A DNA stretch of 64,000 nt from Vibrio sp. YMD68 (GTDB lineage Bacteria > Pseudomonadota > Gammaproteobacteria > Enterobacterales > Vibrionaceae): positions 2,170,001 to 2,234,000 of the forward strand of contig NZ_CP124614.1 of assembly GCF_029958905.1 (NCBI RefSeq), in the 5' to 3' direction. The position numbers and the translations under genes are program-made. Below the pieces are notes generated by a model. It did no database searches. It was not told the DNA's origin and worked only from the letters and a program-made list of their open reading frames with translations. Numbering within the stretch: the stretch's first letter is position 1; the number at the start of each line of letters is the position of its first letter. Below are positions 9,878 to 24,647 of this stretch, one piece after another.

Positions 9878-10939
9878 TTATATCTTCGCTTTTTTGTTAT
9901 TTAGCTGGTCAATGACCGATGGGGGCGCAATTTTTGCGAGTTCAACCATGCACTCATCAGTCTTTTCATTTCCATAGCGGACATAGATATCACACACCGC
10001 ATAAAGATGCTCTGGGGCCCCTGAAATCAAGTAAGCCGTCTCAAACGCTGTTGTCGCTTCATCGATGTTAAATGCTTCTTGTAATACACCGTATACATAC
10101 CAGTAGTAACTATTAGACTTAGCCATCGTTGCTGCAATTTGACTCTCTTTTACCGCTGCCGCTTTATCCTCTAGCCGAACCAAAGTGAGTGACTTGGCGA
10201 AATGAAAATGGGCATTACTTGGTAGTGCTTCTATCGCTTGATCTAGAGTGTCAATCGCTTTTTCATCCATCCCTTGTGCACGATAGTTATCCGCCAGGCT
10301 TAACCGTACTTGTGGGTTGTTCGGTGCAGCTTGTTTTGATTGTAAATACTGCACTTCCGCCAATTCATATTGTTCGGTCCAGCGGTACACATCCGCCAGC
10401 AATAACTGAGACGCGTCATCAGCCTGGTCTTTTAAGTGTCCGATTAACTCGTTAGCCGGCTCAGAGAGTTGTTGTTGACTGGCTGCATCGAGAGTACTCC
10501 TATCTTTGAGTAGGCTGGCCGCAGCGGTTATACGCACTTGCTGAGTGTCATCGGTTAAAAGTGGTGACACTAAACTCCAACGATACTCTAAAGGATAAGG
10601 TTCCGCTCCGACGATCGCTGCTTCCCGGATCGCAGGACTGTCATCTTTTAATCCACGAGCAACGGCGACTAATCCGTTTTGACTTGGCGATGCTCCAAGA
10701 GATCTCAACGCCGCGACTCTAACCTCTTCTGTTTCTGTAATGTCTTGAGCTTGATAAGACCACTGAGACATCGGATCATTCGGTAGGCTTCGCTGTGCTT
10801 GCATCGGCTCAGCTTGAGGACTTAACAAAGCCCCCTGACCATTTGCGCTGCTCGTTGCTAACGTATTCGTTTCCAGGCTGCTTGCGCTGGCTGTATTGAG
10901 CATCAGCATTGACATGGCTAATATCATTGATGTTTTCAT
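9878..10939 (-). CDS. Exported HEAT-repeat/TPR protein next to sulfatase maturase
   Basis: The 353-residue product starts with a signal peptide (MKTSMILAMSMLMLNTASAS). Residues about 70-145 look like HEAT/PBS-lyase helical repeats (EEVRVAALRSLGAS, SPAIREAAIVGAEP, QQVRITAAASLL). Residues about 185-300 look like tetratricopeptide repeats (NPQVRLSLADNYRAQGMDEKAIDTLDQAI). No catalytic motif is visible, so it is probably a periplasmic scaffold or adaptor. It lies 11 bases downstream of the maturase gene in the same operon. A role in handling exported sulfatases is inferred from position only. Confidence 0.8.
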   Translation of the reverse strand: MKTSMILAMSMLMLNTASASSLETNTLATSSANGQGALLSPQAEPMQAQRSLPNDPMSQWSYQAQDITETEEVRVAALRSLGASPSQNGLVAVARGLKDDSPAIREAAIVGAEPYPLEYRWSLVSPLLTDDTQQVRITAAASLLKDRSTLDAASQQQLSEPANELIGHLKDQADDASQLLLADVYRWTEQYELAEVQYLQSKQAAPNNPQVRLSLADNYRAQGMDEKAIDTLDQAIEALPSNAHFHFAKSLTLVRLEDKAAAVKESQIAATMAKSNSYYWYVYGVLQEAFNIDEATTAFETAYLISGAPEHLYAVCDIYVRYGNEKTDECMVELAKIAPPSVIDQLNNKKAKI

Positions 10940-10950
10940 GATGTTGATCC

Positions 10951-12273
10951 TTAAAATTTGGTTTCGAAGCCAACACGTTTTTTCATTTGTTCGCGCAATA
11001 CGGCATCACTGTATTTCCCGTGTTTAACAGGGTGTTTCGTTGCTCGAAGTATGTAGGCTATTGATTTATCAACATGCGAGAAAAATTTATACCAACCCGC
11101 GCATAAATAGTTGAGCCCGGGTTCGCCAGATTTAGTGCGGATAAAACGATTTTTCGGGCACTCTCCGTGACAAGCAAACTGATAATCACACGCCTGACAC
11201 TGCGTCGTTAATGAGCGTGTTTTCGCGAAGCCAAATTTCTGCTGCTCTGGGCCATAAGCCATATCATCCAATTTCTGATGATGTATGTTGCCGATTTTGT
11301 ATTCAGGGTACACGTAGTGATCACAGGTATAGACATCACCATTTGGCTCCATTGCAAGCCCTTTACCGCATAAGTCACTTAACGTACAAAGCGGGTTTCT
11401 GCGCCCCATCCACGTTTCAATACTCGCCTCAAAGTACTGAATAAAAACATTACCTATGTCTTTACGAGCCCACTCATCAAAGATGGTAATTAAGAAATTA
11501 CCCCAAGCCAGATCAGAGACACACCAAGACTCAACAACGGAGTCTTTGCTCCCTGGAATAAGTCTTTTATCCCCTTGCTTAGGTTGATCATTAGGCTGCC
11601 AGGTTTGCGGAGCAGTATCACGGAACGTCTTTTGTTCAACAATGGGGATGAATTGCATCTGAGGGGACTTCACTTCATCTCTCAAGAAGCGATACACCTC
11701 AAGTGCGTTTTGACTGGTTAAGTTATTGACGCATGTTAACGTCGCAAAGCTCACTTTATGCTTGTGCAGCAATTCAACCGCCGCCATCACTTGCTTGAAC
11801 GTTCCCTTACCCGCTTTATTGGTTCTATAGGTATTGTGAAGCATCTCTGGGCCGTCAATACTCAGACCTACAAGAAAATGATGCTTTGCTAAAAATTCAC
11901 ACCATTTATCGTTCAGCAAGATACCGTTAGTCTGTAAGTCGTTCGATATTTTAACGCCATCAGGCTGGTATTTCTTCTGAAACTCGACGATCTTTTCAAA
12001 GTATTCCAGACCAAGCATGGTCGGTTCACCACCCTGCCATGAAAAGATGATCTCCGGTGTATTTTGCGCGTCAATATAATTCTGGATATAGCTCTCAAGC
12101 ATGGCTTCATCCATTTGAGGAGAGCACCCTTTTTTATACTCCAATAGGTCTTGCTTACTTAGGTAATAACAGTATGTGCAGTCAATATTACAGACAGCAC
12201 CGATAGGTTTAGCCATGATATGTAATCGTTTTGACGCTTTACCGTTATATTGAGGACCTTGAGTAATATGCAT
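10951..12273 (-). CDS. Anaerobic-type sulfatase-maturating enzyme (radical SAM/SPASM)
   Basis: The 440-residue protein has the radical SAM cluster motif CX3CX2C (C28, C32, C35) in the context AVCNIDCTYCYYLSK, typical of anSMEs. The C-terminal SPASM region has the expected cysteines (CTLSDLC, GDVYTCDHY, CQACDYQFACHGECPKNRF, LCAGW) for two auxiliary [4Fe-4S] clusters. Such enzymes oxidise an active-site Cys or Ser of sulfatases to formylglycine in the cytoplasm before export, independently of oxygen. A matching Cys-type sulfatase is encoded at 23082-24647. It is the first gene of a two-gene operon and is divergent from the FGE-like gene. Identification is strong; the specific substrate is inferred. 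Confidence 0.93.
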   Translation of the reverse strand: MHITQGPQYNGKASKRLHIMAKPIGAVCNIDCTYCYYLSKQDLLEYKKGCSPQMDEAMLESYIQNYIDAQNTPEIIFSWQGGEPTMLGLEYFEKIVEFQKKYQPDGVKISNDLQTNGILLNDKWCEFLAKHHFLVGLSIDGPEMLHNTYRTNKAGKGTFKQVMAAVELLHKHKVSFATLTCVNNLTSQNALEVYRFLRDEVKSPQMQFIPIVEQKTFRDTAPQTWQPNDQPKQGDKRLIPGSKDSVVESWCVSDLAWGNFLITIFDEWARKDIGNVFIQYFEASIETWMGRRNPLCTLSDLCGKGLAMEPNGDVYTCDHYVYPEYKIGNIHHQKLDDMAYGPEQQKFGFAKTRSLTTQCQACDYQFACHGECPKNRFIRTKSGEPGLNYLCAGWYKFFSHVDKSIAYILRATKHPVKHGKYSDAVLREQMKKRVGFETKF

Positions 12274-12334
12274 TGTTTATTTACCTATCTTAATGTCTTG
12301 CCATAAGCATAACCGTGATCGATAGTTGTCGCTT

Positions 12335-12351
12335 GTTATACCCTTTATAAC
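12335..12351. promoter_or_regulatory. 17-bp inverted repeat GTTATA-N5-TATAAC in divergent promoter
   Basis: GTTATA 12335-12340, five bases, then TATAAC 12346-12351. It lies between the divergent maturase and FGE-like genes. The same half-sites in the opposite order, also with five-base spacing, occur twice upstream of moxR and the sulfatase (22847-22863 and 22968-22984). It is probably a binding site for a dimeric regulator; the regulator is not known. Confidence 0.55.
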
Positions 12352-12374
12352 CATTTGTAATGGCAAAAAAACGC

Positions 12375-12380
12375 TATAAT
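12375..12380 (+). promoter_or_regulatory. Candidate -10 element for FGE-like/AP-superfamily operon
   Basis: A perfect TATAAT lies 31 bases before the chosen ATG at 12412. A TTGTAA at 12355-12360 is only 14 bases upstream, short for a -35, so the promoter may need an activator. The inverted repeat at 12335-12351 would lie just upstream. Confidence 0.5.
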
Positions 12381-12411
12381 AGCGTCTCATACCGAACCTT
12401 TGAGACACCCA

Positions 12412-13200
12412 ATGAAAATCTTTAATTACAGGCACTTATCAGCACTACTTGCGATCACATTCACCCTGTCAATAAGTGGTTGTGCAACTCAACCTCCGCA
12501 CCCTATCGCTTTAGAGATTAATCAGGCGTTGGTTTTGGTCGAAGGCGGAACATTTACAATGGGCTCAAACCTTCCTAAAGCAACAAAAGCAGAACAACCC
12601 GCTCGGGATGTTACCGTGGACAGCTTCTACATAGCAAAGTTCGAAGTCACACAGGCACTGTTTGAATCGGTTATGGGATCATCTCACAGTTTCTTCCAAG
12701 ATCCACAAGTTCCAGTCAATAATTTAAGCTGGCAACAAGCCAATTATTTTATTGACCAACTTAACGAGTTAACAGGTGAAAACTACCGTCTTCCAACCGA
12801 AGCTGAATGGGAATTTGCCGCTCAGGGCGGTATAAAGAGCCAGGGATACATCTACAGTGGCTCGAATAATGTTGACGATGTTGCATGGTATTCAGAAAAC
12901 TCGAACAACCGAGCGCACCCAGTCGGACAAAAAATGCCTAATGAACTTGGCATATATGACATGACAGGCAATGTTGGAGAATTTGTCTCTGATGCCTTCG
13001 ATGATACCTTTTATCGTTTCGGCCCAACTGATAACCCGCACAATGCTGAACATACTTCCCTACACTTAGCGCATAAATCGGTGAGAGGTGGAAGTTTTGC
13101 ATATGATGCTGATCAATCTGAAAACTATCGAAGAGACTTTGCTAGTCAATCCATCATCATGTCTGATATGGGCTTACGCTTAGCTAAAGACGCTAAATAA
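12412..13200 (+). CDS. FGE/SUMF1-fold lipoprotein lacking catalytic cysteines
   Basis: The 262-residue product has a lipoprotein signal (lipobox ISGC, Cys24) and then an FGE-sulfatase (SUMF1) domain. Family landmarks are GGTFTMGS, YRLPTEAEWEFAAQGG, GIYDMTGNVGEFVSD, VRGGSF and MGLRLAKD. In true formylglycine-generating enzymes two cysteines after the RGGS motif do the chemistry. Here that stretch reads SFAYDADQSENYRRDF, and the only cysteine in the whole protein is the lipidation Cys. It therefore cannot act like the known aerobic enzyme and is probably a binding or structural protein. ATG 12412 is chosen over TTG 12400. The next gene follows after nine bases. Confidence 0.88.
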   Translation: MKIFNYRHLSALLAITFTLSISGCATQPPHPIALEINQALVLVEGGTFTMGSNLPKATKAEQPARDVTVDSFYIAKFEVTQALFESVMGSSHSFFQDPQVPVNNLSWQQANYFIDQLNELTGENYRLPTEAEWEFAAQGGIKSQGYIYSGSNNVDDVAWYSENSNNRAHPVGQKMPNELGIYDMTGNVGEFVSDAFDDTFYRFGPTDNPHNAEHTSLHLAHKSVRGGSFAYDADQSENYRRDFASQSIIMSDMGLRLAKDAK

Positions 13201-13209
13201 GGAAATATC

Positions 13210-14937
13210 ATGCCTAATATCCGCTTGTCTGGGTTAACACTCTCACTTCTTTGTGTGTTCTCTACCTTTGCTTTTTCAGAGGCAATCGCTTCTTCAGCGG
13301 AAATAGCTTCTGCTACAAATAGTAAGCCTAACTTGATTGTTCAGATTACCGTAGATGGTTTGCGTGGTGATTTATTGGATCGCTACAAACATAATTTCGG
13401 GGAAGGCGGTTTTCGCTACCTAATGGATGAAGGAGTGCATTACACCAATGCACACTACCAACACGGAAATACAGAAACTATCGTGGGTCATGTCTCTTTA
13501 GCAACAGGCGCTCCACCAAGCGTACATGGTATGGTTGGTAATGTTTGGTTTGACCGTGACGAAGATCGTTTGGTTTACAACGTTGAGGATGCAGACTACA
13601 ACATGCTTACCTCTGGAGCAGGGGTTGATAAGTCTACAGAAATTGACCCAACTCAAAGAACTGCACAAGGTGATGGACGTTCTCCGATACCCATTCTTTC
13701 CACCACTTTTAGTGATGAATTAAGCATTTCGAATAACGGAAAATCCAAAGCATTCAGTGTCTCGATTAAAGACCGTGGTGCGATTTCTTTAGCTGGTCAA
13801 AGCGGTAAAGCTTTCTGGTTTTCAAAAGCGCAATCCGAATTTGCGACCAGTAATTACTATTATGACCAGTACCCTGAGTGGGTGGCTCGCTGGAATGAAA
13901 AGCGATTTACTGATCAATATTCTAAGCAAGCGTGGGATCTTTCATTACCAAAAGAGCAGTACACCTTGGTAGAAAACACGTCAGAACATAAATTTGATTT
14001 AGCTGGGTTTAAACGCACTTTTCCCCACCCTTACGGCCCGTCAAGTTTTCAGTATTATAGTACCATGCTCACGATAAGCCCTGCGGGTGATGAAATTACT
14101 GAAAACTTCGCGAGCACACTGCTCAAGCAAGAAAAGTTGGGCCAAGGTGATGCGACCGACTACCTAGCGGTTAGCTTCTCATCAAACGATTATGTGATTC
14201 ACCTATATGGTCCAGAAAGTCTAGAAACAGAAGATAATCTGATTCGATTAGACCGAACCATTGCAAAAATGCTGAGCACAATAGATAGCCAGGTTGGCTT
14301 GAATAACACGTTGATTGTTTTATCTGCCGATCATGGTGTACCAGAATCGTCACCAGCGGTGAATGCTTTAGGGTTTAATCAAGCACAATACTTCAACAAA
14401 GATACGCTGTTATCGCAAGGCGTTGAACAACGCTTGAAGAGTGAGTTTGGGCTAGATAAAGACGCCATCAGGCTATTCGCTCAACCTTATATCTATTTAA
14501 ATCATGATGTCATCGCGAAGAAAAAAGTTGATTTGGCAAACGTTCAAAATGCGATTGCAGAAGAAATAGCTAAAATCAGTGGCGTAGCTTATGCCGTTTC
14601 AAGCAGCGATATTGCCCGTAATCAAGTTCCAGACACTCGATTGAACCAGTTGATCAAAAACAATTATCATCCGGCTCGTTCAGGTGATATTTATGTTGTG
14701 TTTGCACCACGCAGCTACATTAATGATATGGATGGTTTACAGATCGCTTCAACGCACGGTTCTCCGTGGCGTTATGATACGCACGTACCGGTTATTTTTG
14801 CTGGGTTTGATATTGAACCACAAAGAATCTCTCGTGAAATCACCCCTTATGACATTGCTCCTACCCTGTCGAACAAACTGGGGATCACGCAGCCTAGTGG
14901 TTCAACTGGCGTAGTACTCGCTGAGGTCACTAAATAG
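13210..14937 (+). CDS. Alkaline-phosphatase-superfamily hydrolase (PafA/NPP-like), exported
   Basis: The 575-residue protein has a signal peptide (to about residue 28) and an alkaline phosphatase/phosphodiesterase fold. Metal-site residues are suggested by ITVDGLRGD (D49), SFSSNDYVIHLYG, LSADHGVPES and ASTHGSPW. The nucleophile region reads NTETIVGHVSLATG, placing Thr90 where PafA-type phosphatases carry Thr. There is no C/S-x-P/A-x-R sulfatase motif, so it should not need formylglycine. The natural substrate could be a phosphomonoester or phosphodiester. It is downstream of, and probably cotranscribed with, the FGE-like lipoprotein (AAGGA before ATG). A strong terminator follows. Confidence 0.87.
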   Translation: MPNIRLSGLTLSLLCVFSTFAFSEAIASSAEIASATNSKPNLIVQITVDGLRGDLLDRYKHNFGEGGFRYLMDEGVHYTNAHYQHGNTETIVGHVSLATGAPPSVHGMVGNVWFDRDEDRLVYNVEDADYNMLTSGAGVDKSTEIDPTQRTAQGDGRSPIPILSTTFSDELSISNNGKSKAFSVSIKDRGAISLAGQSGKAFWFSKAQSEFATSNYYYDQYPEWVARWNEKRFTDQYSKQAWDLSLPKEQYTLVENTSEHKFDLAGFKRTFPHPYGPSSFQYYSTMLTISPAGDEITENFASTLLKQEKLGQGDATDYLAVSFSSNDYVIHLYGPESLETEDNLIRLDRTIAKMLSTIDSQVGLNNTLIVLSADHGVPESSPAVNALGFNQAQYFNKDTLLSQGVEQRLKSEFGLDKDAIRLFAQPYIYLNHDVIAKKKVDLANVQNAIAEEIAKISGVAYAVSSSDIARNQVPDTRLNQLIKNNYHPARSGDIYVVFAPRSYINDMDGLQIASTHGSPWRYDTHVPVIFAGFDIEPQRISREITPYDIAPTLSNKLGITQPSGSTGVVLAEVTK

Positions 14938-14995
14938 TACTCAATATCTTTATTCGGATAAAATCAACCCGTAAAGAACACGATAGAAACAAAAT

Positions 14996-15035
14996 AAAGA
15001 GCCGCTTATCAAATAACGATAAGCGGCTCTTTTTA
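14996..15035 (+). terminator. Terminator after AP-superfamily gene
   Basis: A 15-bp perfect stem (14996-15010 with 15018-15032) with a 7-base loop is followed by T bases. A-richness on the other side means it may also work for the convergent LysR gene. Confidence 0.88.
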
Positions 15036-15089
15036 TTATGTGTGACGGTTACTTTAAATCGCCACTGGCGAATAAACATTGACCTAGAA

Positions 15090-15995
15090 TTAACGGGATA
15101 AAACCTTAGCTGCGGCTTTAATTTTTGACCTTAACCATTGATGACTGGATTCATTGGTTCGGCTTGGGTGCCAAATCATACACATGTCGAAGTTATCCAA
15201 CTGAAACGGCAACGGCAACGTTTTTACTTTGTATTTCTTTGAAAAACACTGAACAGAAGAGAGCGGTATCACACCGATATAATCAGAGCCTTCAATGACT
15301 GGAAGCATCTCAACCACCCCTGGCGCTCGGTAGACAATTTTGCGTTTCTCTAAATCACCAAAGTCCTCAGAACTCAAAAGACTTTTACGAGCATGCCAAC
15401 GGGCGACGACGACGTGTTTATTAGACAAGAACTCGTCCATATTAATGCTATCACCAATTGTTGGATGGTCTAAACGACAAACAACAACTAAATCTTCGGT
15501 AGAAATTGCTTCATATTTCAGCGTCGTTCTTCCACGTGGCTTCATATCCAAAATGACATCGTGCCTTTGCAATCTTAAATCCGATTCATAATCTTCTGTA
15601 AACAGTGGATGAACTTCCAAGGCTATATCTGGTGCAACCTGACTAATAAGGTTCATCACCTTAGGCATTAACTCGTAACTTGCCGCTGAAACACACGCGA
15701 TAGAAAATACGCGATTCGATGTTTTTGGATCGAAATCTCTTGAAGCAGATAACGTAGATGTAAAGTTCTTAAGCGCAGCGGCCATCGCAGGGTAAATATC
15801 CGTTGCAAATGTGGTTGGTTCAACCCCAGAGGTTGTTCTATGGAACAAAGGTTCGTTATAGATGTCTCTTAATCGTGCGAGAGCTTTACTGACGGCTGGC
15901 TGACTTATATCCATTCGATTTGCCGCTCTCGATAAGTTCTGCTCTTCGTAAATCGCGACAAATATTGGAATCAAATTGAGCTCGGTACTTTTCAT
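15090..15995 (-). CDS. LysR-family transcriptional regulator
   Basis: This 301-residue protein has an N-terminal winged helix-turn-helix at about residues 6-65 (NLSRAANRMDISQPAVSKALARLRDIYNEPLFHR) and a LysR substrate-binding domain. The first helix region LNLIPIFVAIYEEQNLSRAA resembles the LeuO/NodD-like branch. It sits between the AP-superfamily gene (convergent) and the bat operon (same strand), so it is a candidate regulator of the sulfatase region and of the TATAAC/GTTATA repeats. That link is inferred. ATG 15995 is the only good start. Confidence 0.88.
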   Translation of the reverse strand: MKSTELNLIPIFVAIYEEQNLSRAANRMDISQPAVSKALARLRDIYNEPLFHRTTSGVEPTTFATDIYPAMAAALKNFTSTLSASRDFDPKTSNRVFSIACVSAASYELMPKVMNLISQVAPDIALEVHPLFTEDYESDLRLQRHDVILDMKPRGRTTLKYEAISTEDLVVVCRLDHPTIGDSINMDEFLSNKHVVVARWHARKSLLSSEDFGDLEKRKIVYRAPGVVEMLPVIEGSDYIGVIPLSSVQCFSKKYKVKTLPLPFQLDNFDMCMIWHPSRTNESSHQWLRSKIKAAAKVLSR

Positions 15996-16008
15996 ACAGT
16001 TCCATAGT

Positions 16009-16050: not shown

Positions 16051-16061
16051 TCGATAGAATT

Positions 16062-16077: not shown

Positions 16078-16127
16078 TAGCTCCACGCTAAACCAATAGC
16101 TTAGCGGACTCATTGATTGAAACCTGT

Positions 16128-17534
16128 TTACTTCAGCTTATCTTCTAGGTCCGGTAACGCTTTAGGCAGCTTCAAACGTTGCAGGATTAATGAGAATAAT
16201 CGATAACTAGACGGATTAGTCGATACGAAACGCAGCCCCTTCCATAACCTCATTAATACCTGTTTGTTTTCATCGCCTTGTTGAAAACGCTCACTGTCTG
16301 CTTGCCACTGTGCCTGTTGCATTGCTTTGCTCAGCTCAAGTTGAGAGGTCTGTAGTCGCAATTGCTGGTAAATATAAGTTCTAATCTCTGACCATTGTCC
16401 GTCTTTCAGCAAACGATGTAATACCCACCAACTTGGCGCTGGTTTATTTCGGTAATAACGTTTTACCACCATCAACAAAGTCACCAAAACGATGACCACA
16501 CCGATAACAATAGCGAACGATAAAAAATAAGTTTTGATAAAAGATTTCAGAGTATGCTTCGCTTTAAACACCTCACCTTTTACGACTACGGTTTCAAGAC
16601 GTTGATTTTTACTGTCCCACCACTGAAACGAATAATCAGGTAACGTCAGTTCACCACCTTGTTGAATCACGTAAACAGATTCTTCTGTACGACTTGAGCG
16701 ATAACTGCCTCGTTCTTGCGTATCATCAAGCAAATTCGGCTGTGGGTAAGCCTGATATTGCTGAGTCGACTGATTAGTAAAAAGAGCAGGCAGCAATATC
16801 GATAAGCTGTCTTTCGCGTTCACGGTCATGCGCCTTGTAATCGCATCACCAACCTTTAAATCGTCACTTGAGATTTGCCATGCTTGCTCAAAACCAACCT
16901 CTGTTGCAGTAAACCAGGGGGTTTCTTGGCTAAGTTGCCCTGAGGGTAGCGAAGCGTCAAATTTCATCGGCTGCGTATACAAAGTGCCAGCCACATTCGA
17001 ACCATCTGGAGCGGATACCTGCACCCTAACTGGAATCGCTGGGATGACAAACTCACCCGATACTTGTGGATATATCGTCACTTCCCAACGTTGGCGAGAC
17101 CAAGTCACGCCCTTCACTCGCTCAGTATAGTTAGTGGCCAATTGATTGCGCTGCATTGAGAGAGCATGAGGAATATCCACCATGCCAATTCTCGTTCCCC
17201 CAGTAAGCCAGCGAGGTGTCGACACTTCAATGGTCAAGATCACTTGCTCATGGATGCTGAAACCCGGCTTTACTGCTCCTGTGCTCTCATCTGGATCCTT
17301 GCCAACCCATGCACGAATAGCAACATCACCACTTTTTTGCAGGTCATAGATATCGGCTGCAACCGCAGAGGTCGCGAACAAACTCCCCGTAATAGCAATA
17401 AAAGTAAGGACTAACGTCAGTAACAATGGCTGGTAAGTTCGCAAGACTCGCATTCTTAGGGCTTTAGTCAGTTGACACCAGGTAAGAAGCGCCATTCGTC
17501 GCTGTGTATGGTAGGTGAAAGGAATAAACGTCAT
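16128..17534 (-). CDS. batD: BatD-like membrane protein
   Basis: The 468-residue protein has a long N-terminal region and a hydrophobic signal/anchor (about residues 33-58), a large periplasmic beta-rich part (ADIYDLQKSGDVAIRAWVGKDPDESTGAVKPGFSIHEQVILTIEV), and a C-terminal transmembrane segment (LSFAIVIGVVIVLVTLLMVV). This is the BatD/oxygen-tolerance arrangement. ATG 17534 overlaps the previous stop as ATGA and has GAGGAG upstream, so I kept it despite the unusual 30-residue lead before the hydrophobic segment. It is the last gene of the moxR-bat operon. BatD proteins are thought to act with the VWA proteins BatA and BatB at the membrane; the molecular task is not established. Confidence 0.82.
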   Translation of the reverse strand: MTFIPFTYHTQRRMALLTWCQLTKALRMRVLRTYQPLLLTLVLTFIAITGSLFATSAVAADIYDLQKSGDVAIRAWVGKDPDESTGAVKPGFSIHEQVILTIEVSTPRWLTGGTRIGMVDIPHALSMQRNQLATNYTERVKGVTWSRQRWEVTIYPQVSGEFVIPAIPVRVQVSAPDGSNVAGTLYTQPMKFDASLPSGQLSQETPWFTATEVGFEQAWQISSDDLKVGDAITRRMTVNAKDSLSILLPALFTNQSTQQYQAYPQPNLLDDTQERGSYRSSRTEESVYVIQQGGELTLPDYSFQWWDSKNQRLETVVVKGEVFKAKHTLKSFIKTYFLSFAIVIGVVIVLVTLLMVVKRYYRNKPAPSWWVLHRLLKDGQWSEIRTYIYQQLRLQTSQLELSKAMQQAQWQADSERFQQGDENKQVLMRLWKGLRFVSTNPSSYRLFSLILQRLKLPKALPDLEDKLK

Positions 17535-19237
17535 GGCTTGTTCTCCTCATTTGGCAAAGAAACAGGCGTTTTGAGCTGGATATAAAACTTAGCCCTTAAA
17601 AAAAGCTTAGGATCGGCTTCGACGCGTCGTAGCCATTTATCGGCCAGCTCTTCGCTTCCCAAAATTTCATTTGAATTGAGCGTTTCCTTTATCATCAATT
17701 CAGCCACCGTTTTTTCATCTGCGCCATCGCCTGTTCGTGGCTCATCAGCATCGAGTTCAAAAGACTCCTCGGCTCCATCAGTCGTTCCCATTTGGCTTTC
17801 GCTGGTGCGGTTGATGTCTTCAATAATACTACTGACCACCGCCAAGTTATTTTCCACAGCAGGCCTAAGTTGAGCAGAAAGTTCCGGATTATCAGCCAAA
17901 CTTTTCAACACATCACGAGCGGCCAGGTACTCACGCTGACGAGCTAATGCACTCCCAACATAATACGTACCCAGATCGGTTTTTACCTGTAGGAATGCAC
18001 TGTGTGCCAATTTAAATTCGCGCGCATAATAGTACGCGACCCCTTTGCGTAACGGATCATTAAAGTGCTTTGCCGCTTCAAGATACTTTTTCTGATTCAG
18101 CAAACGCTGCCCCTGTTGATCGGGGGTGAGCCATAAATCCCACCACCATTGGGCACTCTTGTCCCACGTAGAAACTGACTCCATAACGCTCTCGTTAGCG
18201 GCGGTTTGTTCCGTCTTTGATTGAACCATTTGAGCGAAGGTATCAGAGGAATAAAATGAGCCCGTGACGACCAAACCAAGCAAACACCATTGCACCAACC
18301 AACCTTTTCTAAACCAAAACAGCATGATAAGGGCAAGGGGGAACAACAAGCTATAGCCCATGTCTTTCCAAGGCATTGAAGACTCACCGTTAAGCTGCAG
18401 GTTTCTTTCCACTGCTCTATTTAGCTGCTTTATATCACCATCATCAATCGTGACTTCAACCAAGCGACCACCCGTTTTACGAGCCAGGAGATTCAATGAG
18501 TCTAGATCCACCGGATTTTTACTGACGATGTTACTGTTTCCTGCCGCCAGTATTAATAACTGATAAGGCCTTTCACTGAAAAAATCCTCAAAAGCTCGAA
18601 TGGTGGTAGGATTGACACCGTCGGTAACAAGCAGCACTGTCGCCCCGAGTTCCCCAGACAGTTGTTGTTGAATCAATGGCAATGATTTTTCTGCCATTTT
18701 TCCTGATACAGGCATGATTTCTGGTGTTATTGCCGCTAAAAACGGTTCAAATACTTTGCTGTCTTGCGTAACGGGCATCGCAACATGGGCGCTTCCCGCA
18801 TAAACAACTAACCCAGTGCTTCCGCCCTGCCGAGCAGCCAATAGATCTCTAATCTTTTGTTTCGAACGCTCTAATCGGCTAGGAGGTAAATCTTTTTGCA
18901 GCATAGATTCACTGTTATCCAACACGACCAGCATAGAAGCTTTATCTTCACCGAATGGCGATGCTTCGCGCTGCCAAGTTGGGCCAGCACAAATCGTAAT
19001 AGCAAGAGTCACGATAACAATAAGTAGCTTAAGTGGCAGTTTCTTTCGCCATCCTATTTCGCCTATCACCAACGCATTGCGTAAATGGGTAGGTAGAAAC
19101 TCTTTCCAGCCTGCTTTGGTTTCTTCTTGCCAACGCATCCAAAGCAAAAAGAACATCGGAACGAAGGCCAATAACCACAAAGGGCGTATAAAATGAAACT
19201 GCGTGAATAGCTGTTGTATTGTGAGAGAATCAAACAT
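17531..19237 (-). CDS. BatB/BatC fusion: VWA domain plus TPR region
   Basis: The 568-residue product has two N-terminal membrane segments, then a von Willebrand A domain with a complete MIDAS start D-x-S-x-S (D107-N-S-E-S111) and a third transmembrane segment (about 296-312). A C-terminal part contains tetratricopeptide-like repeats (YLEAAKHFNDPLRKGVAYYYAREFKLAHSAFLQVK) and an acidic tail. In Bacteroides, BatB and BatC are separate proteins; here they are fused, as in many gammaproteobacteria. The longer frame to 19303 is rejected because ATG 19237 has AGGAG and overlaps the batA stop by eight bases (ATGTTTGA). It overlaps batD by ATGA. Confidence 0.87.
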   Translation of the reverse strand: MFDSLTIQQLFTQFHFIRPLWLLAFVPMFFLLWMRWQEETKAGWKEFLPTHLRNALVIGEIGWRKKLPLKLLIVIVTLAITICAGPTWQREASPFGEDKASMLVVLDNSESMLQKDLPPSRLERSKQKIRDLLAARQGGSTGLVVYAGSAHVAMPVTQDSKVFEPFLAAITPEIMPVSGKMAEKSLPLIQQQLSGELGATVLLVTDGVNPTTIRAFEDFFSERPYQLLILAAGNSNIVSKNPVDLDSLNLLARKTGGRLVEVTIDDGDIKQLNRAVERNLQLNGESSMPWKDMGYSLLFPLALIMLFWFRKGWLVQWCLLGLVVTGSFYSSDTFAQMVQSKTEQTAANESVMESVSTWDKSAQWWWDLWLTPDQQGQRLLNQKKYLEAAKHFNDPLRKGVAYYYAREFKLAHSAFLQVKTDLGTYYVGSALARQREYLAARDVLKSLADNPELSAQLRPAVENNLAVVSSIIEDINRTSESQMGTTDGAEESFELDADEPRTGDGADEKTVAELMIKETLNSNEILGSEELADKWLRRVEADPKLFLRAKFYIQLKTPVSLPNEENKP

Positions 19238-20315
19238 CGCTCGCTCCTTCCACACTATGATTTGATGATTGCGCACGTGCTCGACGGCGCAATGTCGCCA
19301 CACTGAAGGCCGTTAGATACATCACCACGACAATGCCCATCAGATAATGATGCAGCCCCTGCTTCGGTCGGTAAGTGCTACTTTCATACAGCTGAGGCTC
19401 TAATTCCCCAATGTCGATATAGGCTTGACTCAACTCTTCACGATTCAGTGCTTCAAACGCTTTGCCTCCCGACTCTTGGGCAATTCGATTGATCGTATCG
19501 AGATCAAGCGCTGCTTCACCAACGGTTTGTGGATCACCCATTGCAATCACATGAATGCGAACCCCCTTCGCTTTCGCGACTTTAGCCGCATCAACAGGCC
19601 CAACAAAACTTCCCGTGTCATTCCCATCCGTGAGCACAATGACCACTTTCTCACGCTCATCCGCACTTGCATCATCAAACGAGCCCTGAGGGCTCTGATT
19701 TGGCTGAGTGCTTTGCTCAAAAACCTTAATCGCCAGACCGATCGCATCACCTAAATGTGTACTTGGACCCGCCATGGCCACATCAGTTTGGTTTAATAAC
19801 GCCAGCCAGACCTCTTGATCCGCTGTAAACGGTGTTTGCACAAAAGCTGCGTCGCCAAACAAAATCAACCCAAGGCGGTCACCTTTTCTCGTCGTGACAA
19901 ACTCAGCAAGAACGTCTTTTGCTGCTTCTAAGCGAGTGATTCTTTCGCCTTTTATCGAACTGAAATCTCGTTCAGCCATCGATCCGGACAAATCGACTAC
20001 AACCATCACGTCACGCCCGAACTGCTCTCTGATTTGAGGCTCACCCAACATCGTCGGTTTCGCTAATGCAGACACCACCAGCACCCAACTCATGACTAAT
20101 GTCATGCGTTGCCACCAGCTCGCGGTTAACTGACTCGCACCTTCTGAAGGCGCTTCGCCAATGGCATCAACTAACTCTTTGAAGAAAGGGACTTTGATCG
20201 CCATCTGCTTGGTGCGATAGGCCGGCACGCCAAAATAGACCAACAAAGGTAAAGGCAAAACGATAAACCACAAGGGATAGGTAAATTCAAAACTGGCCGA
20301 AACAATATCAAGCAT
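19230..20315 (-). CDS. batA: BatA-like VWA-domain membrane protein
   Basis: The 361-residue protein has N-terminal membrane segments, a VWA domain with MIDAS D108-L-S-G-S112 and the further motif VIVLTDGNDTG, and a C-terminal transmembrane segment (YLMGIVVVMYLTAFSVATL). This is the BatA layout. VWA proteins encoded with MoxR AAA+ ATPases are thought to act together in protein-complex assembly or metal insertion. Start ATG 20315 overlaps the upstream stop by eight bases (ATGCTTGA), indicating translational coupling. Confidence 0.87.
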   Translation of the reverse strand: MLDIVSASFEFTYPLWFIVLPLPLLVYFGVPAYRTKQMAIKVPFFKELVDAIGEAPSEGASQLTASWWQRMTLVMSWVLVVSALAKPTMLGEPQIREQFGRDVMVVVDLSGSMAERDFSSIKGERITRLEAAKDVLAEFVTTRKGDRLGLILFGDAAFVQTPFTADQEVWLALLNQTDVAMAGPSTHLGDAIGLAIKVFEQSTQPNQSPQGSFDDASADEREKVVIVLTDGNDTGSFVGPVDAAKVAKAKGVRIHVIAMGDPQTVGEAALDLDTINRIAQESGGKAFEALNREELSQAYIDIGELEPQLYESSTYRPKQGLHHYLMGIVVVMYLTAFSVATLRRRARAQSSNHSVEGASDV

Positions 20316-20838
20316 TGCCTTTCTCCATTGAGCTTGGCACCACAGAGGCTCTATGCAATTTTATCCACTCAAGCGATTTCTGAATCACCTCAACACGTTG
20401 ATCTTGAGTGAGGTGCACCTTGGGATCAATAAGACTCTGCATCCACCGCAGAGAAAGTTCATCAGTAAACAGTGGTGGTGCCTTTTTATTGCTTGGTTGG
20501 TAGGCGTTTAACTGGTTCAAACACGACGGCCCGAATAAGCTAGCATTGCGACTGTCTAAATGGCGAAGTACCACTTTGAGCACCTTAAACGCACGCTCTG
20601 CTGCATTTTTTTCTTGTGGATCAATCGACTTCAAGGCGAATACAGCTTCTTGGCGGTACCGGTTCGTCCACCAATGCCTTACCATGCCATAAGCAAAATA
20701 CAGAGCGACCAGCAATAAAGCGAAAACCACGATTTTCCAACCTATGGTTTGAGGAAACCAACGTACGCTTTCTGGTATCGTGATATCTTGAAGATTTCGC
20801 AAGATATAGGTACTCGGCGGAGTGTGTTCGATAGACAT
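20308..20838 (-). CDS. DUF4381 membrane protein
   Basis: The 176-residue protein has one central transmembrane helix (TIGWKIVVFALLLVALYFAYGMV) and a cytoplasmic C-terminal part. This small protein is a standard member of MoxR-DUF58-VWA operons in gammaproteobacteria (DUF4381). The start directly follows the DUF58 stop (TAGATG) with a strong GGAGGGAGA upstream. No enzymatic motif is present; it is probably an accessory subunit of the VWA complex. Confidence 0.82.
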   Translation of the reverse strand: MSIEHTPPSTYILRNLQDITIPESVRWFPQTIGWKIVVFALLLVALYFAYGMVRHWWTNRYRQEAVFALKSIDPQEKNAAERAFKVLKVVLRHLDSRNASLFGPSCLNQLNAYQPSNKKAPPLFTDELSLRWMQSLIDPKVHLTQDQRVEVIQKSLEWIKLHRASVVPSSMEKGNA

Positions 20839-21801
20839 CTATCTCCCTCCTATCCGTTTTTGTAACTGCGATATGTGATCACCCGATGTGTCCAATTCGA
20901 TATAAGGTAGCTGCTTCATTGCCATTAACTGGGCAAGAGATTGCTTTTTACGTTCAGACAGTTGAGACAAACTCTCACTTGCTATGCTGACTTTCGAGGC
21001 GCTGTCTAAGTTCATTTGAAAACTGCCATCACCCACAATCCAATTGGCCTTAGCAATATGTTGAGGTAATGACTGCTCCAATGGATCGCTGATCATGATG
21101 GCGAGAATGTCATTATGTTGCTGAAGCTGTTTTAATCTATCGAGGTGCTGCTCTTGGCAATCACGCCAGTCACTAATAAAAATGAGTGTCGACTGTTTGA
21201 GTCTCATGCGTGTAATCTGTTCGACCCAACGCTCAAAACTGGCCTCTTTATTGTCGTAGGTACTGACATTCAAACTCTGATTTATCTTAACTAAACGTTT
21301 CAATTGAAAGAGAAAATCTGATTGAGAGCGCTGTGCCTGGGAATGAAAAATTCGTTGGTGGGACGCGGTTATAAGCCCGACACGATCACCATCTTTAAGC
21401 ACTCGCCACCCGCATATAGCAGCCACTTCAGCCGCTACAACAGATTTCATTGAATGTTGAGAAGCAAAAAACATAGCGCTGCGTTGATCAACACATATGA
21501 TGACATTGCGGTCCTTTTCTTCCGTGTAACTCCGAACATGCGGCTTGCCTGTTCGCATCGTGACTTTCCAATCAAGGTTTCGGATGTCGTCACCAAGTTG
21601 ATAATGTCGCAACTCCTCGAAGTTTAAACCACGCCCTCGAAATAACGAGTTATGCCGCCCAGAAAGCGCACTGCCCGCTTTTAAATGAGGAAGCAGAGAA
21701 AACGACTCTGCTTGAGCTTGAAGTCGAACCAGTCTTGCATAATCGCAATATATTCGAGGATCAACCCCTTGTGAAGCAGGAGCGTGTGTCGGCTTCGCCA
21801 T
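20839..21801 (-). CDS. DUF58 domain protein
   Basis: The 320-residue soluble protein carries the DUF58 core, including the conserved segment GRGLNFEELRHYQLGDDIRNLDWKVTMRTGKPHVRSYTEEKDRNV. The part after it resembles a VWA fold with an altered metal site (IICVDQRSAMFF in place of DxSxS). DUF58 proteins are encoded with MoxR ATPases and are thought to be their partners. It starts 12 bases after the moxR stop and directly abuts DUF4381. Confidence 0.86.
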   Translation of the reverse strand: MAKPTHAPASQGVDPRIYCDYARLVRLQAQAESFSLLPHLKAGSALSGRHNSLFRGRGLNFEELRHYQLGDDIRNLDWKVTMRTGKPHVRSYTEEKDRNVIICVDQRSAMFFASQHSMKSVVAAEVAAICGWRVLKDGDRVGLITASHQRIFHSQAQRSQSDFLFQLKRLVKINQSLNVSTYDNKEASFERWVEQITRMRLKQSTLIFISDWRDCQEQHLDRLKQLQQHNDILAIMISDPLEQSLPQHIAKANWIVGDGSFQMNLDSASKVSIASESLSQLSERKKQSLAQLMAMKQLPYIELDTSGDHISQLQKRIGGR

Positions 21802-21813
21802 AACGCCCCCTAA

Positions 21814-22797
21814 TTATCCGATTTCAACGCGGTCAAGCAGCTCTTCAACAACTCTTTGCTGGTTGACTCCATCAGCCAGTGCATCGTAAGAGAGTGAGAA
21901 TCGATGGCCTAATACCGATGGAAGCATGGCTCTGACATCATCTAAAGTAACGTGATCTCGCCCTTGTAACCAAGCATACGCTCTCGCACACTTATCGAGC
22001 GCAATCGATGCGCGAGGGCTGGCACCAACGTCAATCCATTGGGAAAGATTCGAATCAGGGTAACGTTCTGGCTTTCTCGTCGCCATCACCAACGCAACAA
22101 TATAGCGCTCAACTAATTCTGAGACGGCAATGTCAGGAAGTTGACGACGTGCCTCTAATACGAGTTCAGGCTCGATGTGAAGAGGAACAGCATCATTAGT
22201 TTGCTTGGTGATCCCAAGCTCCTCACTGCGTACAAGTCGAATAATGTCACGCTCGGCTTCATCTTCGGGGTAGTCTACCGTTACTTTCATGATAAAGCGG
22301 TCCATTTGAGCTTCAGGTAACGGGTAGGTTCCTTCTTGTTCGACCGGGTTTTGCGTCGCTAACACCATAAATAAATCTGGGAGAATATGAGTCTGTCCAC
22401 CCACAGTGATCGTCCCTTCCGCCATCGCTTCTAGCAGTGCCGCTTGTACTTTCGCTGGCGCTCGGTTGACTTCATCGGCCAGGACAATACTGTTGAAAAT
22501 AGGACCAGCCTGAAAATGCAATTGAGGCTTACCATCTAAATCTTGATAGACTTCGGTGCCAGTGACATCTGACGGCAATAAATCCGGAGTAAATTGAATT
22601 CGACCAAAGCTGGCATTCAGTAAGTTGGCTAACGACTTCACTGAACGTGTTTTTGCCGTTCCAGGAAGCCCTTCGAGTAACACATGACCATTGGTCAGAA
22701 GCCCAATAACCAAAGCTCGAACGACATGGCTCTGGCCGATCACACTTTTCTCTGCGTGTTCGATAAGTTGATTTATTGCTTGTTGTGCATGGTTCAT
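21814..22797 (-). CDS. MoxR-family AAA+ ATPase
   Basis: The 327-residue protein has Walker A GLPGTAKT, Walker B VLADEVNRAPAKVQAALLEAM, sensor-1 region MVLATQNPVEQEGTYPLPEAQMDRF and a C-terminal lid. This is the MoxR subfamily, thought to act as a chaperone-like ATPase with VWA proteins. An ATG at 22812 is possible, but ATG 22797 has a better Shine-Dalgarno (GAAGGGAAG). It is the first gene of a six-gene operon with overlapping or abutting cistrons. The promoter lies in the shared region with the divergent sulfatase, which carries two 17-bp inverted repeats. Confidence 0.92.
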   Translation of the reverse strand: MNHAQQAINQLIEHAEKSVIGQSHVVRALVIGLLTNGHVLLEGLPGTAKTRSVKSLANLLNASFGRIQFTPDLLPSDVTGTEVYQDLDGKPQLHFQAGPIFNSIVLADEVNRAPAKVQAALLEAMAEGTITVGGQTHILPDLFMVLATQNPVEQEGTYPLPEAQMDRFIMKVTVDYPEDEAERDIIRLVRSEELGITKQTNDAVPLHIEPELVLEARRQLPDIAVSELVERYIVALVMATRKPERYPDSNLSQWIDVGASPRASIALDKCARAYAWLQGRDHVTLDDVRAMLPSVLGHRFSLSYDALADGVNQQRVVEELLDRVEIG

Positions 22798-22846
22798 AGG
22801 TCTTCCCTTCATTCAATCTCGCTACCCACATTCTACTGACAAGTTC

Positions 22847-22863
22847 TATAACTATTGGTTATA
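22847..22863. promoter_or_regulatory. 17-bp inverted repeat TATAAC-N5-GTTATA, copy 1
   Basis: TATAAC 22847-22852, spacer TATTG, GTTATA 22858-22863. It lies 50 bases upstream of the moxR start. The site at 22968 shares 16 of its 17 bases. The length and symmetry fit a dimeric regulator such as a LysR protein. Confidence 0.6.
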
Positions 22864-22967
22864 CAATCTATATCCCACTCAAAGGGAACGTTCTATTTCC
22901 TAGCGTTGTTTGAACGAAGAGTGTTTCCATCATCAGTCGTTAAAATCATTCAATACGTCACAGTAAG

Positions 22968-22984
22968 TATAACTTTTGGTTATA
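22968..22984. promoter_or_regulatory. 17-bp inverted repeat TATAAC-N5-GTTATA, copy 2
   Basis: TATAAC 22968-22973, spacer TTTTG, GTTATA 22979-22984, about 98 bases upstream of the sulfatase start. It is 121 bases from copy 1 and differs from it at one position. With the site at 12335 it links both divergent promoters of the region. Confidence 0.6.
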
Positions 22985-23081
22985 ACCACTATAAAAGGAC
23001 AGCCACGCTTTTTGAGATTAATGTTTTGCCATCGATGCGTTAACTTAACGCATTAATCTCAATGTAAAAAACGGAGTCCTT

Positions 23082-24647
23082 ATGGGTACTAATTTTAAGC
23101 AACTTGCTATGGGTGCTAGCTTACTAGCCGCATCTACCGCAGTTGTAGCAGCAGAGAAGCCAAACATTCTTGCCATTTGGGGTGATGATGTTGGTATTTT
23201 CAACATTGGCGCATACAACCACGGTATGATGGGCTACGAGACCCCAAATATCGACCGAATTGCTAACGAAGGTGCACTATTTACTGACCACTATGGCCAG
23301 CAATCTTGTACTGCCGGCCGTGCTGCATTCTTAACGGGTCAAGAACCTTTCCGTACTGGTCTTTTGACTATCGGCATGCCTGGTTCTGATCATGGTATTC
23401 CTGATTGGGCTCCTACTATTGCTGACTTACTAAAAGAGCAAGGTTACATGACGGCTCAGTTTGGTAAAAACCACATGGGTGACCAAGATAAGCACCTTCC
23501 AACAGCGCACGGTTTTGACGAATTCTTTGGTAACCTTTACCACCTAAATGCTGAAGAAGAGCCAGAAACATACTACTACCCTAAAGACCCTGAGTTCCGC
23601 GCTAAATACGCACCTCGCGGTGTTATCAAGTCAACGGCTGATGGCAAGATTGAAGATACAGGCCCAATGACGCGTAAGCGTATGGAAAATGCAGATGAAG
23701 AATTCCTAGAAGCTTCCCTAGACTTCATGGAACGCGCAGTGAAAGCTGACAAGCCTTTCTTCATCTGGCACAACACCACTCGCATGCACGTTTGGACTCG
23801 TCTACAAGAGAAATACCAAGGCATTTCTGGAGTGAGTATCTATGCAGACGGTATGATGGAACACGATGATCACGTGGGTGTTCTTCTAGATAAACTTGAC
23901 GAACTAAAAATCGCTGACAACACAATCGTAATCTACTCTACCGATAATGGTGCAGAAACGGGGACTTGGCCTGATGGCGGTGCAACCTTCTTCCACGGCG
24001 AAAAAGGCACAACTTGGGAAGGCGGTTTCCGTGTACCACAACTTGTACGTTGGCCTGGTACTATCGACCCAGGTACTAAAATCAACGACATGATGAGCCA
24101 CAAAGACTGGATCCCAACACTTCTTGCTGCCGCTGGTGATGACAAAGTTGTTGAGAAATTAAAGTCAGACAAAGGCGCACGTTACAACGGTAAAGATTGG
24201 CGTGTTCACTTAGATGGCCACAACTTCCTACCTTTCTTCCAAGGTAAAGAAGAGCAAGGTCCTCGTGATTCTCTGATGTACTTCTCTGCAAATGCTGAGC
24301 TAGATGCGGTTCGTACTGGCGACTTTAAAGTTCAGTTCGCACACATGGAAGGTAACATTGCTGATGGTATTCGTTTCCAAACGAACTGGCCGTCAATCGT
24401 TCACCTGCGTGCAGACCCATTTGAAAAAGCGCCGCACGAGTCTGGTCTATACATGCGTTGGATGGCTGACAACATGTGGTTATTCGTACCAGTAGGTAAT
24501 GAAGTACAATCTTTCTTGTCAACGATTCCTGGCTACCCAATGCAGCAAAGCCAAGTACTGAACCCTGGTAACTTTAACCAGAACGTACTCATGCTGCAAA
24601 GTAAGCTTCAGCAACTTGACGCTGTACACAAGAAAGTGATGCAATAA
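23082..24647 (+). CDS. Exported Cys-type sulfatase
   Basis: The 521-residue arylsulfatase-family protein has a Sec signal peptide (MGTNFKQLAMGASLLAASTAVVAA). Its N-terminal metal-site aspartates are in AIWGDDVG (D35, D36). The formylglycine motif is C76-T-A-G-R in the context QQSCTAGRAAFLTGQ, so Cys76 should be converted to formylglycine. Other active-site segments are KNHMGDQD, IYSTDNGAE and GGFRVPQLVRWPG. A maturase is encoded 11 kb away. It hydrolyses a sulfate ester in the periplasm or outside; the substrate is not predictable. Start ATG has CGGAG upstream. It is a single gene with its own terminator. Confidence 0.93.
   Translation: MGTNFKQLAMGASLLAASTAVVAAEKPNILAIWGDDVGIFNIGAYNHGMMGYETPNIDRIANEGALFTDHYGQQSCTAGRAAFLTGQEPFRTGLLTIGMPGSDHGIPDWAPTIADLLKEQGYMTAQFGKNHMGDQDKHLPTAHGFDEFFGNLYHLNAEEEPETYYYPKDPEFRAKYAPRGVIKSTADGKIEDTGPMTRKRMENADEEFLEASLDFMERAVKADKPFFIWHNTTRMHVWTRLQEKYQGISGVSIYADGMMEHDDHVGVLLDKLDELKIADNTIVIYSTDNGAETGTWPDGGATFFHGEKGTTWEGGFRVPQLVRWPGTIDPGTKINDMMSHKDWIPTLLAAAGDDKVVEKLKSDKGARYNGKDWRVHLDGHNFLPFFQGKEEQGPRDSLMYFSANAELDAVRTGDFKVQFAHMEGNIADGIRFQTNWPSIVHLRADPFEKAPHESGLYMRWMADNMWLFVPVGNEVQSFLSTIPGYPMQQSQVLNPGNFNQNVLMLQSKLQQLDAVHKKVMQ

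What the first reader, a model, noticed from the sequence alone, without database searches (positions are those of the whole stretch)
9878..24647. Sulfatase region combining anSME, FGE-like lipoprotein, AP-fold hydrolase and MoxR/Bat operon
Seen: a radical-SAM sulfatase maturase with a HEAT/TPR partner, an FGE-like lipoprotein plus AP-superfamily hydrolase, a LysR gene, a six-gene MoxR-DUF58-DUF4381-BatA-BatB/C-BatD operon, and a Cys-type sulfatase lie without unrelated genes between them. Known: anSMEs activate sulfatases before export; MoxR/VWA systems are thought to help mature or assemble other proteins. Inference: the Bat complex and the HEAT/TPR and FGE-like proteins could fold, anchor or quality-control exported sulfatase and AP-superfamily enzymes. 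I do not know of a described system with this composition.
Basis: partly seen in the sequence, partly recalled or inferred. Interest (0 to 1): 0.75.

Follow-up and report, generated by a model that had tools for sequence, protein, structure and literature searches.

The report
Sulfatase cluster with dedicated maturation machinery
Marine Vibrio-like bacteria keep an ATP-driven protein-remodelling machine (MoxR/Bat) next to their exported sulfatases, and related gene clusters pair such sulfatases with an uncharacterised eight-heme cytochrome that could be a missing sulfatase-activating enzyme.

Summary
The genes are real and at the stated coordinates, and the grouping is not chance. The moxR-DUF58-DUF4381-batA-batB/C-batD operon belongs to a Bat clade tied to S1 sulfatases. 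In 150 family genomes, all 75 carrying this clade have a close sulfatase, against 9 of the other 75. 85 of 91 operons have a sulfatase nearby, against 0 of 33 other Bat loci.

The window's HEAT/TPR protein is a heme-less relative of the C-terminal half of an octaheme cytochrome-HEAT-TPR protein (CYT), which lies elsewhere in this genome beside another sulfatase. CYT neighbours sulfatases in 20 of 32 loci outside the family. It adjoins Cys-type sulfatases (37 of 100) but no Ser-type (0 of 21); anSME shows the reverse (3 of 100; 18 of 21). Eight near-complete genomes have a Cys-type sulfatase and CYT, no anSME over cut-off and no recognisable FGE.

Best reading: MoxR/Bat with HEAT/TPR is a periplasmic maturation module for exported sulfatases; linkage is shown, mechanism (perhaps calcium insertion) inferred. 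Boldest reading: CYT makes formylglycine in Cys-type sulfatases. The FGE-like lipoprotein lacks FGE's catalytic cysteines.

The parts
9878..10939 (-). Exported HEAT/TPR repeat protein (353 aa, no CXXCH), 11 bp downstream of anSME; heme-less relative of the C-terminal half of the octaheme cytochrome-HEAT-TPR protein
   Evidence: Pfam TPR/HEAT; 34% identity over 293 alignment columns to L078 CYT residues 456-745, E 2e-48; family survey; N-terminus reads as a signal peptide (my reading)
10951..12273 (-). Anaerobic sulfatase maturase (anSME), radical SAM/SPASM
   Evidence: TIGR03942 491 bits, cut-off 349; CxxxCxxC at residue 28; found at E<=1e-60 in 92 of 150 family genomes
12400..13200 (+). FGE-like (SUMF1-fold) lipoprotein without FGE catalytic cysteines
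   Evidence: PF03781 150 bits; only cysteine is residue 28 in a lipobox-like stretch; 58 of 150 family genomes
13210..14937 (+). PafA-like AP-superfamily hydrolase
   Evidence: PF01663; NF042991 453 bits, under its cut-off of 650; PDB 5tj3 PafA E 1.1e-85; PafA homologues also beside sulfatase, CYT or Bat in L243, L251, L253, L284, L289
14996..15032 (.). Terminator-like inverted repeat between the PafA-like gene and lysR, listed on both strands
   Evidence: Consensus scan; 17 terminator-like sites found against a mean of 14.3 in shuffles, so weak as a class
15090..15995 (-). LysR-family regulator, next to batD in many relatives
   Evidence: PF00126/PF03466; layouts
16128..17534 (-). BatD-like protein
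   Evidence: PF13584
17531..19303 (-).
   Evidence: PF13519; MIDAS DNSES at 129; surveys
19230..20315 (-). BatA-type VWA protein
   Evidence: PF13519/PF00092; MIDAS DLSGS at 108
20308..20838 (-). DUF4381 protein
   Evidence: PF14316
20839..21801 (-). DUF58 protein
   Evidence: PF01882
21814..22812 (-). MoxR AAA+ ATPase, first gene of the bat operon
   Evidence: PF07726 202 bits; Walker A GLPGTAKT, Walker B VLADEV
22813..23081 (.). 269-bp divergent gap between moxR and the sulfatase; in many relatives a second sulfatase and the octaheme cytochrome gene lie here
   Evidence: Coordinates; relatives
23082..24647 (+). Exported S1 sulfatase, Cys-type (C76-T-A-G-R)
   Evidence: PF00884 182 bits; motif; closest solved chain by sequence 7aj0 arylsulfatase, E 5.6e-55

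Best explanation
The locus is a sulfatase unit carrying its own maturation machinery. Shown here: (1) this MoxR/DUF58/DUF4381/BatA/BatBC/BatD operon belongs to a Bat clade that stays near S1 sulfatases, through rearrangements and in paralogous clusters, while sister Bat clades do not; (2) in 16 of 64 Bat loci read, sulfatase, anSME, moxR and the five further bat-operon genes follow one another on one strand; (3) the HEAT/TPR protein following anSME is kin to the C-terminal half of an octaheme cytochrome that neighbours sulfatases more widely. Inferred: anSME converts Cys76 of the nascent sulfatase to formylglycine in the cytoplasm (established chemistry of that family, recalled); the protein is exported by Sec; the periplasmic HEAT/TPR protein holds the immature enzyme; the membrane Bat complex, driven by MoxR, remodels it for final assembly. 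The likeliest final step is loading the active-site calcium that S1 sulfatases need (recalled), as MoxR/VWA pairs load metal into nitric oxide reductase and, from recall, methanol dehydrogenase. My probabilities: functional Bat-sulfatase link about 0.85; role in maturation or assembly about 0.6; calcium insertion in particular about 0.25.
For: 75 of 75 genomes with this Bat clade have a sulfatase at E<=1e-60, against 9 of 75 others. 82 of 91 loci have a listed sulfatase within 15 kb, and three more were found on reading (L131, L132; L082): 85 of 91. Controls: 0 of 24 generic and 0 of 9 second-group Bat loci. Same-strand run sulfatase-anSME-moxR-DUF58-DUF4381-batA-VWATPR-batD in 16 of 64 Bat loci read (L065-L133 and the window; e.g. 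L069, L071, L081, L082 and L098, L099, L103, L106). A divergent Bat group again beside a sulfatase in L158, L159. Bat and sulfatase in one read stretch outside the family in L260, L263, L264, L265, L277 (about 11 kb apart) and L289, four families. HEAT/TPR kinship. MoxR/VWA pair as metal-insertion machine: NorQD (PMC9976466, PMC13036017; passages).
Against: Neighbourhood shows association, not mechanism; genes may share only regulation. Genome counts are not corrected for common descent. Close sulfatase homologues outside the family mostly lack Bat: 0 of 20 sulfatase-centred loci show it, though several contigs are short. G035, G149 and G132 have the operon with no sulfatase in the 17-19 kb read, and three loci (G073, G079, G124) were not read. 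In G126 one anSME/sulfatase cluster has no Bat in the 15 kb read; its Bat is with other sulfatases on another contig. No CAZyme survey was done, so a shared substrate is not excluded. Nothing here tests calcium.
Confidence: 0.6

Rival explanations
1. Catabolic island: the genes sit together because they are induced together for one sulfated (and phosphorylated) substrate, with Bat serving general envelope maintenance under the same regulator.
For: A LysR gene and a PafA-like phosphatase lie in the locus; L064 and similar loci of the splendidus/fortis group have extra genes between PafA and LysR that read like periplasmic binding proteins (my reading of the sequences, no family search).
Against: The recurrent core is enzyme plus Bat or CYT; it recurs in paralogous clusters with different neighbours and in four families outside the own family. 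Generic Bat operons did not show a sulfatase (0 of 24).
Confidence: 0.2
2. The octaheme cytochrome-HEAT-TPR protein, not Bat, is the key sulfatase-specific factor, and Bat serves the cytochrome (for instance its assembly), so Bat meets sulfatases only through it.
For: Bat beside CYT without a sulfatase in the stretch read in G035 and G149 and in L262, L284 (L284's contig ends nearby); CYT-sulfatase linkage is wider than Bat-sulfatase linkage (20 of 32 against 6 of 32 CYT loci).
Against: Ser-type operons have sulfatase, anSME and Bat with no CYT adjacent (0 of 21 Ser-type sulfatases), and G042 and G117 have Bat but are not among the genomes with a HEAT/TPR or CYT match at E<=1e-15.
Confidence: 0.12
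3. Bat and HEAT/TPR proteins are general helpers of exported AP-superfamily metalloenzymes, including the PafA-like phosphatase, rather than of sulfatases.
For: PafA homologues sit with CYT and Bat in L284 and L289 and beside sulfatases in L243, L251, L253.
Against: PafA is found in 49 of 150 family genomes and this Bat clade in 75, all with a sulfatase; outside the family, Bat beside PafA without a sulfatase was seen only in L284, whose contig ends nearby, so this is weak.
Confidence: 0.15

Closest known systems
NorQ/NorD (MoxR + VWA) of nitric oxide reductase
   Same: MoxR AAA+ ATPase with a MIDAS VWA partner and a dedicated client; drives metal insertion (PMC9976466, PMC13036017, passages)
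   Different: A two-protein pair for a membrane enzyme (recalled); here six genes including DUF58, DUF4381, two VWA proteins and BatD, beside exported sulfatases
MxaRSACKL accessory genes of methanol dehydrogenase (recalled)
   Same: From recall: MoxR, DUF58 and VWA genes needed for calcium in a periplasmic enzyme
   Different: Different client; no Mxa sequence was compared here
Generic Bat (aerotolerance-type) operon
   Same: Gene order moxR-DUF58-DUF4381-batA-VWATPR-batD in most of the 24 loci read; 134 of 150 family genomes have some VWA-TPR match, generic or not
   Different: Separate group in the tree; no sulfatase in 24 of 24 loci read
anSME/sulfatase operons
   Same: Radical-SAM maturase next to its sulfatase
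   Different: Here extended by Bat, HEAT/TPR and, in relatives, an octaheme cytochrome
OcwA, outer cell-wall multiheme cytochrome (PDB 6i5b)
   Different: CYT has eight CXXCH and a C-terminal HEAT/TPR domain and neighbours sulfatases

Membership tests
anSME | TIGR03942 above cut-off | tested here: met
   491.3 bits, cut-off 349.45
anSME | CxxxCxxC and SPASM domain | tested here: met
   Residue 28; PF13186
anSME | Formylglycine formed in the sulfatase | not testable with these tools
   Needs mass spectrometry
S1 sulfatase | PF00884 and (C/S)-x-(P/A)-x-R motif | tested here: met
   182 bits; C76TAGR
FGE (formylglycine-generating enzyme) | Catalytic cysteine pair near the C-terminus | tested here: not met
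   Only cysteine is residue 28
PafA alkaline phosphatase | NF042991 cut-off | tested here: not met
   452.8 bits, cut-off 650; PDB PafA is still the best match
MoxR-Bat operon | MoxR with Walker A/B, DUF58, MIDAS VWA proteins, BatD | tested here: met
Generic Bat clade | Groups with Bat loci that have no sulfatase nearby | tested here: not met
   Window falls in the sulfatase-linked group of 29 rows (25 with a sulfatase in the stretch read; SH-aLRT 99), apart from 19 generic rows (100), quick tree
MxaRSACKL | Homology to Mxa accessory proteins and calcium insertion | not tested
   No Mxa sequence was fetched; resemblance is recalled

The most novel reading that the evidence does not exclude
The octaheme cytochrome-HEAT-TPR protein is a third, Cys-specific formylglycine-forming system: a periplasmic multiheme enzyme that takes electrons from the active-site cysteine of the unfolded, exported sulfatase held by its HEAT/TPR arm, needing neither FGE nor radical SAM. 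The window's HEAT/TPR protein would be a heme-less descendant kept as the capture arm where anSME does the chemistry. Evidence: CYT adjoins Cys-type but no Ser-type sulfatases (37 of 100; 0 of 21), anSME the reverse (3 of 100; 18 of 21). CYT occurs in 67 of 84 sulfatase genomes and 1 of 66 others. Eight genomes, 99-100% complete, have a Cys-type sulfatase and CYT, none with an anSME over cut-off or an FGE cysteine pair in the stretches read. Association only; no chemistry was tested.
Probability: 0.2. Interest if true: 0.92.

Novelty: new variant of a known kind. Interest (0 to 1): 0.68.

Why it matters
MoxR/Bat operons are widespread, but for many the client protein is unknown (recalled); a Bat clade with a fixed, easily assayed neighbour makes the function directly testable. 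Separately, a third sulfatase maturation system was proposed for E. coli in 2007 (Benjdia et al., seen only as an entry in the reference list of PMC6189696); PMC6189696 itself (passages) says that E. coli modifies only cysteine and that the machinery has been elusive. The cytochrome found here has a Cys-only association of that sort and gives a concrete gene to test in other bacteria; whether E. coli has a homologue was not tested. Sulfatases matter for breakdown of algal and host glycans, and formylglycine is used for protein conjugation.

Tried and rejected
The FGE-like lipoprotein as the sulfatase maturase: rejected, no catalytic cysteines. The generic Bat operon as the explanation: rejected, the groups differ. 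A known FGE or anSME in the CYT-only genomes: searched; 10 PF03781 matches in the 8 genomes, none with a C-x4-C-x-R-x-R pair in the stretch read; seven look like OvoA (label recalled). The best anSME-type match is 154 bits in G072, under the cut-off; in the other seven it is 47 bits or less, or absent.

Not settled: G069 has a Ser-type sulfatase with no anSME in the 19 kb read or at E<=1e-60, an exception. G083 looked anSME-free at 1e-60 but has a divergent anSME-type gene beside its Ser-type sulfatase, so that threshold misses some. G094's sulfatase match may be a fragment.

Literature: the listings show no paper on a sulfatase-MoxR/Bat or sulfatase-octaheme cytochrome link. Several were capped (10 of 167 listed, 25 of 37, 25 of 41, 12 of 128) and most subscription papers are not held, so this is not proof of absence. 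Passages only were seen of PMC9976466, PMC13036017, PMC12175321, PMC5615132, PMC6189696 and PMC5712619. PMC5615132 notes sulfatase genes near planctomycete-specific cytochrome genes in Verrucomicrobia, a different cytochrome; PMC12175321 and PMC5712619 gave nothing used here. Foldseek on the CYT model showed repeat-protein matches in its 50 listed rows; the heme-domain match appeared in the second look and, weakly, by sequence (6i5b).

A matched control (random regions of the same outside-family genomes) could not be fetched; in its place, only 21 of 369 class genomes hold any sulfatase this close (E<=1e-100).
Full report
WHAT IS THERE. The gene list of the finding is correct. The window is base 2170001-2234000 of contig 2 of a 4.85-Mb, 99.95% complete genome; the nearest named relative met is Vibrio genomosp. 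F10, 93% identical in the VWA-TPR protein (L084). On the minus strand anSME (10951-12273) is followed 11 bp later by a HEAT/TPR protein; on the plus strand an FGE-like lipoprotein is followed by a PafA-like hydrolase; a LysR gene and the six-gene moxR-to-batD operon run on the minus strand; a Cys-type sulfatase faces moxR across a 269-bp gap. MoxR has Walker A and B motifs and both VWA proteins have MIDAS motifs. The FGE-like protein has no catalytic cysteine pair and is not an FGE.

IS IT MORE THAN CHANCE? I searched 150 genomes of the family for six of the proteins. anSME was found in 92, a close sulfatase in 84, the FGE-like protein in 58 and the PafA-like protein in 49. For the VWA-TPR marker I took from the listing every locus at 245 bits or more plus one fragmentary locus at 179 bits (G084), counting each gene once and dropping second pieces of the same gene; the eleven rows at 183-224 bits were set apart as other groups. 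That is a grouping made after seeing the scores. The tree supports it (97 loci thinned to 57 rows; a group of 29 rows, 25 of them with a sulfatase in the stretch read, SH-aLRT 99; a generic group of 19 rows, 100; 4 rows of DUF1254-beside loci, 100; quick method, long branches flagged). The set has 91 loci in 75 genomes; all 75 have a sulfatase, against 9 of the other 75 (Fisher 8e-33, not corrected for descent). 82 of 91 loci have a listed sulfatase within 15 kb on the contig. Of the nine others, three have one on reading (G034 and G049; G117), three have none in the 17-19 kb read (G035, G149, G132) and three (G073, G079, G124) were not read: 85 of 91 in all. Control: 24 generic Bat loci and 9 loci of the 194-224-bit group, 0 of 33 with a sulfatase by my profile at E<=1e-5 (one of the 33 stretches is only 11 kb; Fisher 3e-24). 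Of those 9 loci, 7 hold a DUF1254/DUF1214-type protein by motif (Pfam for one).

ARRANGEMENTS. Of 64 Bat loci read in L065-L133 and the window, 41 hold the approximately 770-residue protein described below and 16 have sulfatase, anSME, moxR, DUF58, DUF4381, batA, VWA-TPR and batD in that order on one strand (examples L069, L071, L081, L082 and L098, L099, L103, L106); the sulfatases of those examples are Ser-type. In many other relatives a second Cys-type sulfatase and the approximately 770-residue protein lie between moxR and the first sulfatase. In this genome a sulfatase and such a protein lie together on contig 1 (L078). L158 and L159 hold a divergent Bat group, again beside a sulfatase, with anSME within about 2 kb.

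CYT AND SULFATASES OUTSIDE THE FAMILY. A phylum survey found CYT at E<=1e-60 in 35 of 398 genomes, 40 loci, 32 of them outside the family. Reading up to about 9 kb on each side where the contig allowed, 20 of 32 have a sulfatase, in 12 of 14 families (L260, 261, 263, 264, 265, 267, 269-274, 277, 281, 282, 287-291). Four were confirmed by Pfam (L267, L270, L277, L287); the others rest on my profile and motif. CTAGR and CSPTR motifs occur, in proteins of different lengths; every motif that could be read is Cys-type. Bat genes lie in the stretch in 8 of 32, with a sulfatase too in 6 of 32 (four families). L289 has CYT, sulfatase, PafA, moxR, DUF58, DUF4381, batA and VWA-TPR on one strand. The reverse survey is weaker: of 20 sulfatase-centred loci outside the family, CYT is near in 2, PafA in 3, a true FGE motif in 1 (L254) and Bat in none; several contigs are short.

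CYS AGAINST SER. I took 121 distinct close sulfatases from the window and loci L065 onward (L169-L219 left out; profile over 380 bits, over 430 residues). Of 21 Ser-type, 18 have anSME within 600 bp and 0 have CYT; of 100 Cys-type, 3 have anSME and 37 have CYT. Two of the three remaining Ser-type ones have anSME within about 2 kb; the third is G069's. Loci were partly chosen for these genes and are related, so the contrast counts, not the rates. By genome, CYT is in 67 of 84 sulfatase-positive and 1 of 66 other family genomes; that one, G105, has a CSPTR sulfatase about 11 kb away. CYT was counted here as a HEAT/TPR match in an open frame of 600 residues or more; not all of these were fetched and checked for the eight heme motifs.

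GENOMES WITHOUT A KNOWN MATURASE. Eight genomes (G007, G030, G052, G064, G072, G099, G111, G144; 99-100% complete) have a Cys-type (CTAGR) sulfatase and CYT, and seven have the Bat clade. None has anSME over the cut-off; none of their 10 PF03781 matches shows the FGE pair in the stretch read. Against this reading: G069 has a Ser-type sulfatase without a maturase found, so my maturase search may miss some; a different unknown maturase could serve all of these; and the other 59 genomes with sulfatase and CYT also have anSME.

HOW IT LIKELY WORKS. anSME acts in the cytoplasm before export (family knowledge, recalled). HEAT/TPR, BatD and the FGE-like lipoprotein face the periplasm (inferred from N-termini and family). 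MoxR/VWA pairs remodel clients for metal insertion: NorQD loads iron (PMC9976466 and PMC13036017, passages). S1 sulfatases hold calcium and the Mxa genes serve calcium loading of methanol dehydrogenase (both recalled). Hence the working model: HEAT/TPR captures the exported sulfatase and Bat completes its active site. The order of steps and the metal are inference.

NOVELTY. MoxR/Bat modules with dedicated clients are a known kind; a sulfatase-dedicated Bat clade was not met in the searched library (several listings capped). The cytochrome as a formylglycine-forming enzyme would be categorically new but rests on association alone.

Noticed in passing
L149-L157: A second Bat group sits near a DUF1254/DUF1214-type protein (motif in 7 of 9 loci, Pfam on L149) instead of a sulfatase, as if Bat groups have different dedicated clients.
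   Followed up: partly
L064:6756-11524: Splendidus/fortis-group loci carry two periplasmic-binding-like proteins and a GGDEF/EAL-like protein between the PafA-like gene and lysR (identities read by eye, no Pfam call).
   Followed up: no
L129 and L130 (G035, G149): Window-type Bat operon beside the octaheme cytochrome with no sulfatase in the stretch read; sulfatases lie elsewhere in both genomes.
   Followed up: partly
L066:6961-7512 and L083:7970-8521: A 183-residue exported-looking protein lies between anSME and the HEAT/TPR gene in two clusters; the L066 copy has no Pfam match.
   Followed up: no
L222 (G069): Ser-type sulfatase with no anSME found in the stretch read; genes that read like DUF1254-type proteins lie nearby (by eye).
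   Followed up: no
window:24835-25855: A glutathione-peroxidase-like gene and a DUF3429 gene follow the sulfatase on the same strand; the glutathione peroxidase gene is also beside the sulfatase in L084.
   Followed up: no
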